Of a stretch of 64,000 bases of DNA, positions 14,047-20,751 are shown in pieces. The translations under genes and the position numbers were made by a program. The DNA lies in assembly GCA_030427805.1 (NCBI GenBank), contig JAUICP010000002.1, positions 434,001 through 498,000 of the forward strand, given 5' to 3'. The DNA comes from Bdellovibrionia bacterium. GTDB taxonomy: Bacteria > Bdellovibrionota > Bdellovibrionia > Bdellovibrionales > JAGQZY01. The notes under the pieces were generated by a model. That model had not been told where the DNA came from. It worked only from the letters and a program-made list of their open reading frames with translations, and did not search any database. Within the stretch, counting starts at the first letter, position 1; each line of letters begins with the position of its first letter.

Positions 14047-14097
14047 AAAAAATCTAAAAACAAGAGCCCCCAAGGTTTAATTGGGGGCATAGATTTT
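14047..14097 (-). terminator. Intrinsic terminator of the DUF4214 gene
   Basis: On the minus strand GCCCCCAA...TTGGGGGC (8-bp stem, 7-base loop) is followed by T-rich sequence, and an outer AAAATCTA/TAGATTTT pair extends the stem. It overlaps the stop codon of the gene at 14096. The remainder of the 13810-14046 gap shows nothing I can name. Confidence 0.8.
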
Positions 14098-14842
14098 ACT
14101 GGTACCACTGCGGGGTTGAATTGACCTCATCAAAAATTTCTTCGGCCCAAGCCCTTCGGTTGGCATTGATAAGAACTGCCGTTTGATCATTACCTTGGGC
14201 TCCGTGAAGGAGGTCCGATTCAAACTGGATATTCGCAGAAAACTGACTTGCTCGATTGTACTGAGTTAACCAGTAGTCCAAACCCGCTGGCTCTGCATTT
14301 CTACCGAAATAAAGCAAATACATGGCATTGATATACTCTTCCCGCAAAAAGTTGGGGAAGGTTCTATCAGCGTCTCTAATTAAATCGATGGCTTCATTGA
14401 TTTTATTGTCGTTATTGATGGACTTGGCCCTATCCCCATTTGCAACATTTGAGTTAATGACTATATCGGCCAATACACTGATCCGAGATTCACTGTCGTT
14501 ACCACGATTGACAATTTGTTGAACCCAGTAATCGAGACCAGCTTGCTCAGCATCTCTTTCGAAAAAGAATTGATAGGCGTCATTGACCACTTTTTGATTA
14601 CCTGTGAGGGCAACGGGAGTCGGTGTCGGCGTCGGGCTTGGAGTGGGCGTAGGAGTCGGTGTCGGACTTGGAGAGTTGTTGCCGTTGTCAGACTCTGGCT
14701 CGCTCGGAATAGTTCCTCCTCGGTTACCAGACTCTCTATCTGTATTAACATTCTTCTTTGTTGGTAATCGATTACTGGATTGAGAACAATTCACAGAAAA
14801 AATAAGTGCGATGGTCATCGCAAAAACGAAACTAAGCTTCAT
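14096..14842 (-). CDS. DUF4214-type lipoprotein with Pro-Thr linker
   Basis: The ATG at 14842 is chosen over 14956 because a GGGGGG ribosome-binding patch precedes it and it starts the signal peptide. A lipobox-like FSVNCS is followed by a Ser/Pro/Thr linker (PTPTPTPSP), then two DUF4214-like units: YQFFFERDAEQAGLDYWVQQ and YLLYFGRNAEPAGLDYWLTQ. DUF4214 modules occur in secreted and surface proteins, often with S-layer or RTX proteins. An anchored surface role is likely; the ligand is unknown. Confidence 0.8.
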   Translation of the reverse strand: MKLSFVFAMTIALIFSVNCSQSSNRLPTKKNVNTDRESGNRGGTIPSEPESDNGNNSPSPTPTPTPTPSPTPTPTPVALTGNQKVVNDAYQFFFERDAEQAGLDYWVQQIVNRGNDSESRISVLADIVINSNVANGDRAKSINNDNKINEAIDLIRDADRTFPNFLREEYINAMYLLYFGRNAEPAGLDYWLTQYNRASQFSANIQFESDLLHGAQGNDQTAVLINANRRAWAEEIFDEVNSTPQWYQ

Positions 14843-15006
14843 TCGGCCCCCCAATTTAATTAACTTTTTCAAACCACCCAGTGACAATAAAGAGCAAGGC
14901 CTATTCCATAGTTTTACAGCTGAGAACTCAAATATTTCGATCTGAGACTCATTCACTGTATAAACGGTTTCTATTTGAGTTGATGATTTGCGACTGTATT
15001 AAAGAT

Positions 15007-17119: not shown

Positions 17120-17294
17120 GGCCACTCCTTTTCCTTATTACGAAAGCCTCTTGCAGGCTAGATCCAGCAAAATAAGGCAAACTTAGGCCCGAAAAAGGGT
17201 TTCGACAAGGGCAATTCCCCGGTTGTGGCTGCGTTGCGCTAAAATCCAACAGAGAGCCCAACAGATCATTGCCACTAAACAAGTTGAAGACTCC

Positions 17295-18287
17295 CTATCG
17301 AGAAAATAGAGACTCGCAACGGGAAGGTCCTTTTGAAAAAAAGGCGCGAATATCTCGGTATTTAATAAAGCGGCGTGATTCCGACACTTGGCCATTGGAG
17401 TAGCTGAAGTACCAACCGCGATTCATTAGAAAACGAGAGCTAAAAAAGACCTTGAGGGGACGAGTGACCCCGGCAATCAATGTATTTAAAGCCACCGCGG
17501 TCGGGGCCGAAAGGGCAATGCTTCTACCGACTAGGGGCAAAAGGTTTGGCGCTAATCCCGCATCACCCGGAAAAATATTAAACAGAGCTTGCAAAACATC
17601 GGGAGACTGAAGTGCTGCAGCTGTGATTGCTGTCGACATTATAGCCGTAATCACCAGTGAAGATTTTATGAGTGTTCTCAGATTGGGAAGAAAGTACTTA
17701 AATTTTAAATATTCGGGCTGATCAAAAAGCATGGAGACTTCTTTTGTATTGGCCCCGTATATTCCACCTTCAGTCGCCGAAAAGAAATTAAGAAGAGATT
17801 TTCCCCGCAGAGAAGCGCTTTCTTTAGTTCCGCAAAAAACAGAGCAACTATTGAGAAGAATTTGTAAATTGCGACTGGTTTTATTTTTTATTGGCTCTAA
17901 AGCAAAAGCCAGTTCATCGCTAATTTTATCTTCGTAAATCTTACCTAAACCAACCAACTCAGTTGTGGGTTTGCTGTTACGATTGCGAGTATAGCCATGG
18001 GTTCCCACAACTAAAAATTGAATCTCATCGTTCTCGTTAATAGTGCTCTGAAGGCGCTGGCGCAAAGCCTTACGAAAACCACGGTTGGTGAAATATCTCC
18101 CCGGTCGCATTTTAATAACTTTGTACTCAAGATCGGGGCGCAAGTCGGATACTAAAGCTTCTGTTAGTTCGGATTCATGGGTGGTAAATGCGGTATCATC
18201 TACCAGTAGAATTTCAAGGGCCACTGGGTTTTGCCCAAAGCTCACATTTGAAATTAACAACAGAGTTAAAAAAACAAGGAATCGCAT
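17295..18287 (-). CDS. Exported caspase-like (clan CD/CHAT-like) protein with membrane segments
   Basis: Start at ATG 18287, which begins a signal peptide (MRFLVFLTLLLISNVSFGQ); 330 residues. The central domain has a hydrophobic strand ending in VVGTHG (His97) and about 50 residues later ILLNSCS (Cys148), with LVGLG and a run of alternating strands and helices between. His-Gly then a strand-turn-Cys is the clan CD cysteine peptidase (caspase, CHAT) layout. Downstream are two hydrophobic stretches (about 205-230 and 250-280) that may be membrane segments. It may be an envelope-located protease, or a pseudo-enzyme. Divergent from the lytic transglycosylase gene. Confidence 0.6.
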   Translation of the reverse strand: MRFLVFLTLLLISNVSFGQNPVALEILLVDDTAFTTHESELTEALVSDLRPDLEYKVIKMRPGRYFTNRGFRKALRQRLQSTINENDEIQFLVVGTHGYTRNRNSKPTTELVGLGKIYEDKISDELAFALEPIKNKTSRNLQILLNSCSVFCGTKESASLRGKSLLNFFSATEGGIYGANTKEVSMLFDQPEYLKFKYFLPNLRTLIKSSLVITAIMSTAITAAALQSPDVLQALFNIFPGDAGLAPNLLPLVGRSIALSAPTAVALNTLIAGVTRPLKVFFSSRFLMNRGWYFSYSNGQVSESRRFIKYRDIRAFFSKGPSRCESLFSR

Positions 18288-18437
18288 GGGCCAATCAGGT
18301 TGCAATAGGTGTACTCACTCAAAGGAAACCTCCGGCTTTTTTCAAAGACTTATGGGGTGATTGCAGGCAAATTGCCGCCTCTTCGAGTAATAATTTCCTA
18401 GTTCCCGGTTTCACTCTACGACTCGTTCTTCTTCTCG

Positions 18438-18453
18438 TGGCACTTCCATTGCT
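18438..18453 (+). promoter_or_regulatory. Sigma-54-like -24/-12 element
   Basis: TGGCACTTCCATTGCT matches TGGCAC-N5-TTGCT exactly at the -24 GG and -12 GC. The implied start site (about 18464) leaves only about 4 bases before the ATG at 18468, so either the transcript is leaderless or the match is fortuitous. Confidence 0.35.
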
Positions 18454-18467
18454 CCTTAGTTCGGCGT

Positions 18468-20108
18468 ATGGGTTGGTCGCGTGGTTTAGTATCCATTTTT
18501 GTAATTCTAATTTCGGCCCTTCTCGGTGGTTGTACTGCTGGTATGGAGGCCTCTGATAGTCTGATGCTCAGGCAGCTTCGCGACTATACCGGAGGAATTC
18601 GCCCTAGTGACCACGTCGCCTATACTGCTGCCTCTAATGATCACCTCTTGCAAAATGTAAAAACCAAAATTGATGCCGATAACTTTGGAAATCAAAAATT
18701 GGGGAACTCACTCATCCAAGTAAAGAATTCCTACAAGAATGAAGTCTATGAACTAGAAATCGAGTTGATCGATCCTTTCAGTGAGCAAAAAACGCTTCTC
18801 AAGTTTTCTGGAAAAATGGAAGAAGACGGAAATCACCTCAAATCGGAAGAACTCAAAGACCCTTCGAATCACAAGTACACTACCATGCTGACCTGTTTTG
18901 ATCGAAAGTGCCATCTCAGTATGATTATGCTCTTTTTAGGAGGAGCAAAAAATCCAAACGCTGTCGCTGGTTTTGTTTTGCGAAATAATAAAGCCCATTT
19001 TAAAACTTACGGAGCCAGTCCTTCGAGTCACTCGGCGCAGCTCAAGGCACACACCCGATCTATAACAGAAGTAAACGTTACGAGTGTCGAAGTCGCCCAT
19101 GGCCCGGCTTGGATCCAGGCCAATGTTTCGGATCAATTTTGCTTTCGCGCAGAACTCATTGAAACCAACGAAACCGATGAAAGCCTTAACCTAGCCTGCG
19201 CAAAATCAGACTTTGAAGAGGAGTTTCAAATCAAATCAGCCTTTCTCGTTGGAAACACCAACAGCGGTGATTGGATTTTTCAGATTTTCTTTAAAGATGA
19301 CTCAAGCCTTTTTATGAGTTTGTTTACGACTGATCGCGAACTCGATCTGGTTGCTGATTTTCCACTCGAGGACGAACCGCCCCACATCGACGACGGTAAA
19401 AACGAAGGTTATTTAAGAATCAATTGGAACTCTTATGTTACAAAAAAATTCAGAGAGTCCTTTACTCGCGACAAGGTCATCGAAAAACGAAACTCCTTTA
19501 AGACGACCGATCGTGTGCAGAACTATATCAATGGTTTGATTCCACGATTGGGTGAGATCACACCTTACTTTGATGAACATGGAGTTCCCCAGGAATTAAT
19601 AATGGTTACTTGGACGGAGTCCGATTACTTTTCGAGCCCTGGCTACCCGGTTCGCATTGGAGCCGACGGTGAAGTCGGTCCCTACCAAATTATGAAAGCC
19701 ACGGGCCGAGGAAACCCAATGAATCTTCGCGTTTTTGATTTGATTAACTCAAACGGTAGGAAAGTTCATAACCGCTGTGACGAACGAGCCAATTTAAAGA
19801 AGGCTTCTGAAGCTGCCGCCAAATACTTTGCCTGGCTTTTAAAAAGTTTTCCGAAAGATCCACACCTGGCTGTACTCTCATACAACTGGGGAATCGGTCA
19901 TGTTCGCGGAAAAGTTTCGAGTCTTGAACGAGCTCACGACGAGGGCTTTCAGTTTTGGACTATGGTGCAATTTAATATGATTCCAAAGTTTCGCGTTAGT
20001 TATGTGACTAAGTTTTTGGGAATTTTTTCACTCATAGGTGACCCAGAAGCCAATGGATACAGTATTCCCAGGGCACGCCCCTACACTCCAAGTGAACCTG
20101 AGTGTTAA
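18468..20108 (+). CDS. Lipoprotein with C-terminal lytic transglycosylase (SLT) domain
   Basis: 546 residues, with a lipobox LLGGC at Cys22. The N-terminal 350 residues form an unrecognised, probably beta-rich region. The C-terminal domain is SLT-like: PQELIMVTWTESDYFS with predicted catalytic Glu384, then VGPYQIM in the place of the usual GLMQLM, and AVLSYNWGIGHV matching the AYNAG-type motif. Such enzymes cut peptidoglycan glycan strands with 1,6-anhydro products; a lipid anchor places this one at a membrane. No clear ribosome-binding site precedes the ATG. Confidence 0.82.
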   Translation: MGWSRGLVSIFVILISALLGGCTAGMEASDSLMLRQLRDYTGGIRPSDHVAYTAASNDHLLQNVKTKIDADNFGNQKLGNSLIQVKNSYKNEVYELEIELIDPFSEQKTLLKFSGKMEEDGNHLKSEELKDPSNHKYTTMLTCFDRKCHLSMIMLFLGGAKNPNAVAGFVLRNNKAHFKTYGASPSSHSAQLKAHTRSITEVNVTSVEVAHGPAWIQANVSDQFCFRAELIETNETDESLNLACAKSDFEEEFQIKSAFLVGNTNSGDWIFQIFFKDDSSLFMSLFTTDRELDLVADFPLEDEPPHIDDGKNEGYLRINWNSYVTKKFRESFTRDKVIEKRNSFKTTDRVQNYINGLIPRLGEITPYFDEHGVPQELIMVTWTESDYFSSPGYPVRIGADGEVGPYQIMKATGRGNPMNLRVFDLINSNGRKVHNRCDERANLKKASEAAAKYFAWLLKSFPKDPHLAVLSYNWGIGHVRGKVSSLERAHDEGFQFWTMVQFNMIPKFRVSYVTKFLGIFSLIGDPEANGYSIPRARPYTPSEPEC

Positions 20109-20175
20109 TCGAAATAATATTTGTTCCACAATTTACGAAGTAAAAACAAATTACTAATGCACAGTTGCACAGAAT

Positions 20176-20204
20176 TTGACTTGCGTAGCCATAACAATTT
20201 TTAA
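20176..20204 (+). promoter_or_regulatory. Tentative sigma-70 promoter for ecotin
   Basis: TTGACT, 17 bases, TTTTAA, ending 63 bases before the ATG. The -35 is good and the -10 is weak. Confidence 0.35.
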
Positions 20205-20267
20205 AAACCCTACTTTCCAAAATAGAATTAATTTAGTCTCCAGCCAAATTTTTCTAAGGAGAAACAA

Positions 20268-20750
20268 ATGAAATTTCTGGTTATCTTGATGATGGTTTTG
20301 GGAGCTCAGTTCGCTCAAGCTGATATTACAACCGTGTACAATTCAATGGACGGTACAAAAGAAGCAAAAGGTTATCTTAAAGCTTTCCCTATGCCTGAAG
20401 CTGATGAAGTTAGAAACGTCATCTACCTCAAACCTCTAAAAAAAGAACACATGTCTAAAGTTGAAATCATGGTTGGAAGCATGATGAAAACTGATGCTTG
20501 TAACCACTATCACACCTACGGCGAAATCGAAGAAGTGAATGTTGATGGTTGGGGTTTTACGGCTTATCTCTCTAAGCTCGGTATGACGACAACAACTCTC
20601 ATGGGTTGCAATGATCCTACAATGACAACTCGATTTGTTGGTGGACCTGTACTTACGGTTCGATACAACTCTCGTCTTCCACTCGTTGTTTACACGAAAA
20701 AAGGCGAAGTTCTTAAGTACAGAATTTGGAAGACTAAAAAGAGCTTCTAA
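20268..20750 (+). CDS. eco: Ecotin (periplasmic serine protease inhibitor)
   Basis: 160 residues with a signal peptide (to FAQA), preceded by AAGGAG. The mature chain matches ecotin throughout: YLKAFPMPEADEVRNVIYL, VEIMVGS, a Cys at TDACNHY, VDGWGFTAY, the reactive loop TTTTLMGC with Met112 at the P1 position (as Met84 in E. coli ecotin), VLTVRYNSRLPLVVYT and KYRIWK. The two loop-bracing cysteines are conserved. Ecotin dimers inhibit trypsin-like proteases. Ends one base from the convergent folD. Confidence 0.93.
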   Translation: MKFLVILMMVLGAQFAQADITTVYNSMDGTKEAKGYLKAFPMPEADEVRNVIYLKPLKKEHMSKVEIMVGSMMKTDACNHYHTYGEIEEVNVDGWGFTAYLSKLGMTTTTLMGCNDPTMTTRFVGGPVLTVRYNSRLPLVVYTKKGEVLKYRIWKTKKSF

Positions 20751-20751
20751 T

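What the first reader, a model, noticed from the sequence alone, without database searches (positions are those of the whole stretch)
17295..18287. Exported caspase-like protein with His97/Cys148
The VVGTHG and ILLNSCS motifs sit in the order and spacing of clan CD peptidases, behind a signal peptide and ahead of hydrophobic segments. Exported caspase-fold proteins are uncommon and mostly known as gingipain-like proteases. It is divergently arranged with a lytic transglycosylase lipoprotein, so both may work in the envelope, perhaps during prey or host attack.
Basis: inference. Interest (0 to 1): 0.58.

Follow-up and report, generated by a model that had tools for sequence, protein, structure and literature searches.

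The report
Exported caspase-fold peptidase in gene island
This bacterium, a relative of Bdellovibrio, carries an exported protein that very probably folds and cuts other proteins like the caspase enzymes of our own cells; it belongs to a so far unnamed family and sits in a gene slot that a sister species has filled with a different exported protein.

Summary
The gene at 17295-18287 (-) encodes 330 residues: a signal peptide, a caspase-type alpha/beta core with His97 and Cys148 at the ends of strands 3 and 4, and a hydrophobic stretch before the last strand. AlphaFold2 models of this protein and of a homologue both match clan CD peptidases. The best match is Tce1, a type VI effector (Z 12.5 and 12.0), then CHAT, C11, C80, metacaspases and caspases. 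Across 19 family members at 22% mean column identity only three columns are invariant, and His97 and Cys148 are two of them. No member tested matches a known clan CD Pfam family, so this looks like an unnamed clan CD family, found so far only in Bdellovibrionota (19 of 368 genomes). In sister genera folD adjoins gcvT. In this genus an island (ecotin, transglycosylase lipoprotein, one variable slot) lies between them, and the nearest relative fills the slot with an unrelated exported protein. Best explanation: an accessory, Sec-exported, envelope-associated cysteine peptidase. Proteolysis, substrate and any role in predation are untested.

The parts
17295..18287 (-). exported clan-CD-type cysteine peptidase gene, 330 aa plus stop
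   Evidence: ORF; homologues; model
18234..18287 (-). signal peptide, residues 1-18 (predicted cleavage VSFG|Q)
   Evidence: sequence; heuristic positive in 15 of 19 family members
17748..18230 (-). caspase-type core, strands 1-5 (residues 20-180), pLDDT mostly 85-96
   Evidence: structural matches
18198..18200 (-). Asp30 codon, end of strand 1; candidate S1-pocket acidic residue (D in 14 of 17 filled rows)
   Evidence: position logic from PMC4357240 section 17
17997..17999 (-). His97 codon, predicted catalytic histidine at the end of strand 3 (19 of 19)
17844..17846 (-). Cys148 codon, predicted catalytic nucleophile at the end of strand 4 (19 of 19)
17832..17834 (-). Cys152 codon, candidate disulfide partner of Cys324 (10 of 19 have C152, all 10 also C324)
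17427..17714 (-). hydrophobic helical stretch between strands 5 and 6 (residues 192-287), low model confidence; possible membrane hairpin in place of helix 5
17364..17423 (-). last strands (residues 289-308) with near-invariant Asn289 (18 of 19) and invariant Gly291
17316..17318 (-). Cys324 codon in the C-terminal tail
17129..18432 (.). variable slot: this stretch is replaced by an unrelated 2.4-kb stretch in the sister species (flanks about 93% identical)
18468..20108 (+). lipoprotein with SLT transglycosylase domain; kept in the sister species (96% aa)
20268..20750 (+). ecotin-family protease inhibitor, last gene of the island
   Evidence: Pfam Ecotin E 2.6e-31

Best explanation
It is an accessory, horizontally exchanged cysteine peptidase of clan CD (caspase/haemoglobinase fold) that is exported by Sec and works outside the cytoplasm, most likely held at the periplasmic face of a membrane. 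The signal peptide is removed. Strands 1-5 and the last strand form one sheet; the His97 base and Cys148 nucleophile sit at the ends of strands 3 and 4 and hydrolyse a peptide bond. Asp30 (loop 1) and Asn146 (loop 4) would line the S1 pocket and favour a basic P1 residue. A hydrophobic helical hairpin replaces helix 5 and would hold the enzyme to a membrane; an even number of crossings is needed because strands 5 and 6 must lie on the same side. A Cys152-Cys324 disulfide would pin the C-terminal tail. Shown here: the gene, its conservation, the predicted fold (twice), lack of any matching Pfam family, the patchy distribution and the slot exchange. Inferred: proteolysis, P1 preference, hairpin topology, disulfide. 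The role (dispensable weapon, defence or envelope-remodelling protease) is a guess.
For: Fold: the model from 6 sequences has core pLDDT 85-96 and the order b1-a1-b2-a2-b3-(three small strands)-a3-b4-a4-b5-...-b6, which matches the caspase topology described in PMC4357240, dyad positions and small L3 sheet included. Foldseek's best PDB hits are Arabidopsis metacaspase 9 (E 4.3e-4, prob 1.00), then MALT1 and caspases, with one unrelated ExoVII chain at rank 9. VIA-align gives Tce1 Z 12.5 over 164 residues (rmsd 3.6), SAVED-CHAT 9.2, C11 iotapain 9.0, TcdB CPD 8.8. A model of homologue L029 repeats this (Tce1 Z 12.0, 161 residues). Dyad: H97 and C148 in 19 of 19, G98 in 17 of 19. Tce1's His186/Cys240 (PMC13323088) lie at nearly the same offsets from the aligned start as H97/C148. 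Export: heuristic signal peptide in 15 of 19, against 8-40 of 500 shuffles per row. Accessory status: 19 of 368 genomes, slot swap, adjacent tyrosine recombinases at 2 homologues (expected 0.11, P about 0.006), and the window's nearest relative lies in another family.
Against: No activity data exist. Only 3 of 955 PDB matches reach E<=1e-3, and whole-model TM-scores are low (0.15-0.27), with the C-terminal half poorly modelled. The hydrophobic stretch has pLDDT about 37-57, and two hydrophobic peaks occur in only 7 of 19 members (one in 6, none in 6), so membrane anchoring is not a family trait. D30 is not universal (Q or G in 2 of 17 filled rows). Position 146 varies (N, E, D, S, R and others), so the basic P1 preference is weak. 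The Cys152/Cys324 pattern may only reflect descent. Two members with complete-looking starts (L016, L008) gave no signal peptide by the heuristic. Slot exchange shows dispensability, not function.
Confidence: 0.66

Rival explanations
1. It is a weapon: exported and then released or delivered to prey or competitors, where the hydrophobic hairpin inserts into the target membrane and the caspase-fold domain cleaves a target protein, as a Sec-exported counterpart of T6SS effectors such as Tce1.
For: Closest structure is the effector Tce1 (Z 12.5 and 12.0). Patchy, swappable slot of exported proteins. The alternative slot protein also starts with a signal-peptide-like stretch and has hydrophobic segments. 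Recombinases lie next to 2 homologues.
Against: Signal peptide and no T6SS sheath gene (VipB) in 9 of 9 carrier genomes searched argue against Tce1's own delivery route. No immunity-like partner recurs. The hairpin is not conserved in the family. Nothing shows secretion beyond the periplasm, and whether these organisms are predators is unknown.
Confidence: 0.3
2. It is a self-acting envelope protease (maturation, shedding or stress response, or defence against invaders at the envelope), comparable to clan CD processing enzymes such as the GPI transamidase subunit or PorU (these two recalled).
For: Signal peptide plus possible membrane hairpin fit a resident periplasmic enzyme; GPI transamidase appears in the structural list for the homologue model (7w72_K, Z 6.5, rmsd 10.5).
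Against: Missing from the four other genomes of its family searched, G001-G004, and replaced by an unrelated gene in the sister species, so no fixed housekeeping role. The GPI transamidase match is within background. No defence model matched significantly (PADLOC best E 0.033).
Confidence: 0.28
3. It is a catalytically dead caspase-fold protein used as a scaffold or binding domain.
For: Pseudo-orthocaspases exist (PMC6426788, start of abstract). No activity has been measured.
Against: His97 and Cys148 are 2 of only 3 invariant columns among 19 highly divergent members; a dead scaffold would not be expected to keep just these.
Confidence: 0.07
4. Divergent transglycosylase and caspase-like protein form a functional pair.
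For: They share an intergenic region of about 180 bp and are both predicted to be exported.
Against: In G001 the transglycosylase (96% identical) keeps its place beside a different gene. At 31 homologue loci none of 7 window neighbours was found.
Confidence: 0.06

Closest known systems
Tce1 (PA0256) of Pseudomonas aeruginosa, putative cysteine protease cargo of the H3 type VI secretion system (PDB 9qpe; PMC13323088)
   Same: Best structural match of both models (Z 12.5 and 12.0 over 161-164 of 178 residues); His/Cys dyad at corresponding offsets; no adjacent immunity gene reported there or seen here
   Different: Tce1 has an N-terminal domain and loads into Hcp3 rings; this protein has a signal peptide and a hydrophobic insert, and no T6SS sheath gene was found in 9 of 9 carrier genomes. 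No sequence match (PDB searches).
Clan CD family C14 (metacaspases, orthocaspases, paracaspases, caspases)
   Same: Same core topology with dyad at ends of strands 3 and 4, Gly after His, small sheet between strand 3 and helix 3
   Different: No Pfam match to any peptidase family at E<=1; helix 5 replaced by a long hydrophobic stretch; exported
Secreted clan CD peptidases of bacteria: C11 (iotapain), C25 (gingipain)
   Same: Exported caspase-fold peptidases; iotapain Z 9.0
   Different: No sequence match to C11 or C25 Pfam models
Autoprocessing C80 domains of large toxins
   Same: Same clan; TcdB CPD Z 8.8
   Different: Here a stand-alone exported protein; no toxin architecture; no sequence match

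Membership tests
Peptidase clan CD | caspase/haemoglobinase core: strand order and helices 1-3 around a parallel sheet | tested here: met
   two predicted models; matches; topology text
[quoted passage not shown]
   His97 after E87-95, Cys148 after E137-145; 19 of 19 conserved
Peptidase clan CD | glycine adjacent to the catalytic histidine | tested here: met
   G98 in 17 of 19; A and R in one row each
Peptidase clan CD | P1-directed endopeptidase activity | not testable with these tools
   needs biochemistry
Pfam-covered clan CD families (C11, C13, C14, C25, C80 and others) | significant sequence similarity to the family profile | tested here: not met
   hmmscan at E<=1: window protein 0 families; 10 further members, none hits a peptidase model; one weak DUF4347 hit at E 0.18; NCBIfam none for the window protein
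Gingipain (C25) | C25 domain order with Ig-like domain and type IX secretion tail (recalled) | tested here: inconclusive
   no Pfam match and no such domains visible in 330 aa, but no direct fold comparison with gingipain was printed
Tce1-type T6SS effector | same catalytic-domain fold | tested here: met
   Z 12.5 and 12.0
Tce1-type T6SS effector | delivery by a type VI secretion system | tested here: not met
   VipB absent in 9 of 9 carrier genomes, E. coli control positive; signal peptide present
Known anti-phage defence effector | match to a PADLOC model | tested here: not met
   best E 0.033 to an unrelated Cas2 model

The most novel reading that the evidence does not exclude
A new clan CD family in Bdellovibrionota: Sec-exported, sometimes membrane-hairpin-bearing relatives of T6SS caspase-fold effectors, carried as exchangeable cargo in a slot between gcvT and a transglycosylase-ecotin island, and used against other cells without any contractile secretion system.
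Probability: 0.2. Interest if true: 0.68.

Novelty: new variant of a known kind. Interest (0 to 1): 0.45.

Why it matters
It adds an unnamed family, not recognised by sequence profiles, to the caspase clan in bacteria, found so far only in Bdellovibrionota, a phylum known for predation. Its nearest fold is a recently solved type VI effector, but it carries an export signal instead of a delivery module, so it offers a way to ask how caspase-fold enzymes move between being injected weapons and resident envelope enzymes. The folD-gcvT island with its swappable slot gives a place to look for further exported accessory proteins in this genus.

Tried and rejected
Sequence-only routes gave nothing. 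Pfam and NCBIfam at E<=1, PHROGs and PADLOC and PDB sequence searches with the single protein and with two profiles found no clan CD relative. Plasmids and phages by tblastn: no match. Viral contigs: 104 pattern matches, none a relative. Genome contigs: 34 pattern matches, 5 relatives, all titled Bdellovibrionota-type MAGs. That pattern was strict and so cannot prove absence from other phyla.

A shared operon or neighbour was looked for and not found. Promoter and terminator scans gave no more sites than shuffles and were not used. A gene tree has long branches, and only the pairing of the window protein with L017 is used.

The gingipain reading was dropped for lack of any sequence match. A T6SS cargo reading was dropped because of the signal peptide and the missing VipB. 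The viral structure library gave one hit at E<=1e-3, a Tupanvirus ORFan, with a caspase-domain and a metacaspase-like protein next; these add nothing beyond the clan.

Literature: (Bdellovibrio with caspase-like) listed 2 papers and (Bdellovibrionota with caspase) counted 11 and listed 8; by the titles and abstract starts shown none describes such a family. One search, with six terms and any two required, listed 15 of 152; none of the 15 contains the word Bdellovibrio. Subscription papers and preprints are not held, so 'undescribed' means not seen in these searches.

Rows dropped before counts: L018 was left out of the 19-member alignment because its frame holds a stop. L009-L015 and L023 repeat places already held as L001-L007. 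G101 (the carrier of L018) was not among the 18 genomes searched for recombinases.

Full report
What is there. Residue and codon positions were checked against the raw sequence: His97 is 17997-17999, Cys148 is 17844-17846. The N-terminus reads as a type I signal peptide ending VSFG|Q. A plain heuristic finds a signal-peptide-like start in 15 of 19 family members, against 8 to 40 of 500 shuffled controls per row. The four without one are a copy truncated at its N-terminus (L005), a piece of a fusion protein (L019), and L016 and L008.

Relatives. The window genome has one copy. A single-protein search of 59 genomes, its own included, found it in 8. A 7-sequence profile found it in 15 of 143 genomes of the class and 19 of 368 of the phylum, 20 genes in all. 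None of the four other genomes of its own family that were searched, G001-G004, has it. Named contigs are all Bdellovibrionota-type MAGs. No relative was found in viral contigs, plasmids or phages.

Conservation. I aligned 19 of the 20 genes, leaving out L018, whose frame has a stop. Mean column identity is 22%. Of 115 gap-free columns three are invariant: H97, C148 and G291; the probability that both predicted catalytic residues fall among three random columns is about 5e-4, and dropping one or two short rows does not change the three columns. The glycine after the histidine is kept in 17 of 19, Asn289 in 18 of 19, and an acidic residue at position 30 in 15 of 17 filled rows.

Fold. The order of elements is that of caspases as described in a review of clan CD (PMC4357240, abstract, passages and section 17 seen), including the small three-stranded sheet between strand 3 and helix 3. 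Foldseek against the PDB ranks Arabidopsis metacaspase 9, MALT1 and caspases highest, with one unrelated ExoVII chain at rank 9. VIA-align on those candidates puts Tce1 first at Z 12.5 (164 residues, rmsd 3.6), clear of SAVED-CHAT (9.2), iotapain (9.0) and TcdB CPD (8.8). A model of homologue L029 repeats Tce1 first at Z 12.0. For that model AMPA-receptor N-terminal domains reach Z 7.6, and an FMN reductase reaches 8.3, so only Tce1 stands clearly above background; the others count because nearly all high ranks are clan CD. Tce1 is described as a putative cysteine protease with His186 and Cys240, loaded into Hcp3 rings (PMC13323088, abstract and passages). From the aligned starts (20 and 110) the dyad offsets are 77/128 here and 76/130 in Tce1; this is arithmetic on ranges, not a printed residue map.

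Membrane part. Two hydrophobic peaks lie between strands 5 and 6 in the window protein. Since both strands belong to one sheet, the chain must cross a membrane an even number of times or not at all. Two peaks occur in 7 of 19 members, one in 6, none in 6, so the hairpin is a feature of some members only. Cys152 occurs in 10 of 19, always together with Cys324, which 12 have; a disulfide is plausible in an exported protein but the pattern may follow descent.

Setting. In three genomes of sister genera, folD is followed directly by gcvT and gcvH. In the window and in the nearest relative (G001), an island lies between folD and gcvT: ecotin, the SLT lipoprotein, and one further gene next to gcvT. 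In G001 the lipoprotein is 96% and gcvT 99% identical, and the flanking DNA is about 93% identical, but window 17129-18432 is replaced by 2.4 kb encoding an unrelated 604-residue protein with a signal-peptide-like start. That protein was found in 1 of 143 genomes, G001 itself, and has no significant Pfam match. Two other homologues have a tyrosine recombinase gene directly downstream (L030, L033); with 114 recombinase hits in 18 carrier genomes about 0.11 such neighbours were expected (P about 0.006). The window protein's nearest relative belongs to another family of the order. These facts make the gene accessory and probably mobile, and they argue against a fixed partnership with the transglycosylase.

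Mechanism. I think it most likely that this is an active Sec-exported clan CD peptidase of the envelope. The basic-P1 guess rests on Asp30 and the loop positions named in PMC4357240 and is weak, since position 146 varies. Whether it acts on its own envelope or on other cells is open; no T6SS sheath gene was found in 9 of 9 carriers searched, so delivery in the Tce1 manner is unlikely.

Known or new. MEROPS lists eight clan CD families (PMC12445089, passages). No member tested (11 proteins) matches a peptidase profile in Pfam at E<=1. The clan is known; the family appears unnamed in the searches made. Exported or membrane-linked caspase homologues as such are already known from surveys (PMC3501461, passages).

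Noticed in passing
L019:1279-3177 (-), also L048:3415-5313: A 633-residue open frame joins a MutS domain V ATPase (Pfam E 2.6e-14) to a C-terminal domain of this caspase-like family, with no signal peptide seen; H and C are kept.
   Followed up: partly
L024:2142-3491 (-): A protein-kinase-domain gene (Pkinase E 1.1e-13) with a signal-peptide-like start lies directly upstream of the homologue in L024, on the same strand; an exported kinase beside an exported caspase-like protein is odd.
   Followed up: no
L046:6468-8279 (+): Orphan 604-residue protein with a signal-peptide-like start that fills the same slot in the sister species; found in 1 of 143 genomes, no significant family match.
   Followed up: partly
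window 17126-20751: Island of ecotin, SLT lipoprotein and a variable gene inserted between folD and gcvT in this genus; sister genera have folD and gcvT adjacent.
   Followed up: yes
L033:5881-6726: Homologue lacking strands 1-2 and the signal peptide, beside a recombinase gene: probably a decaying copy.
   Followed up: partly
L018:1435-2214: Homologue whose frame is broken by one stop codon; decay or assembly error.
   Followed up: no
L003:958-1392 and L004:2442-2843: By eye, similar small exported proteins lie next to the homologue in two species of one genus, upstream in one and downstream in the other; no Pfam match.
   Followed up: no
window 14096-14956 (-): DUF4214 protein with a long Pro-Thr/Ser repeat linker near the N-terminus, likely surface-exposed.
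   Followed up: no
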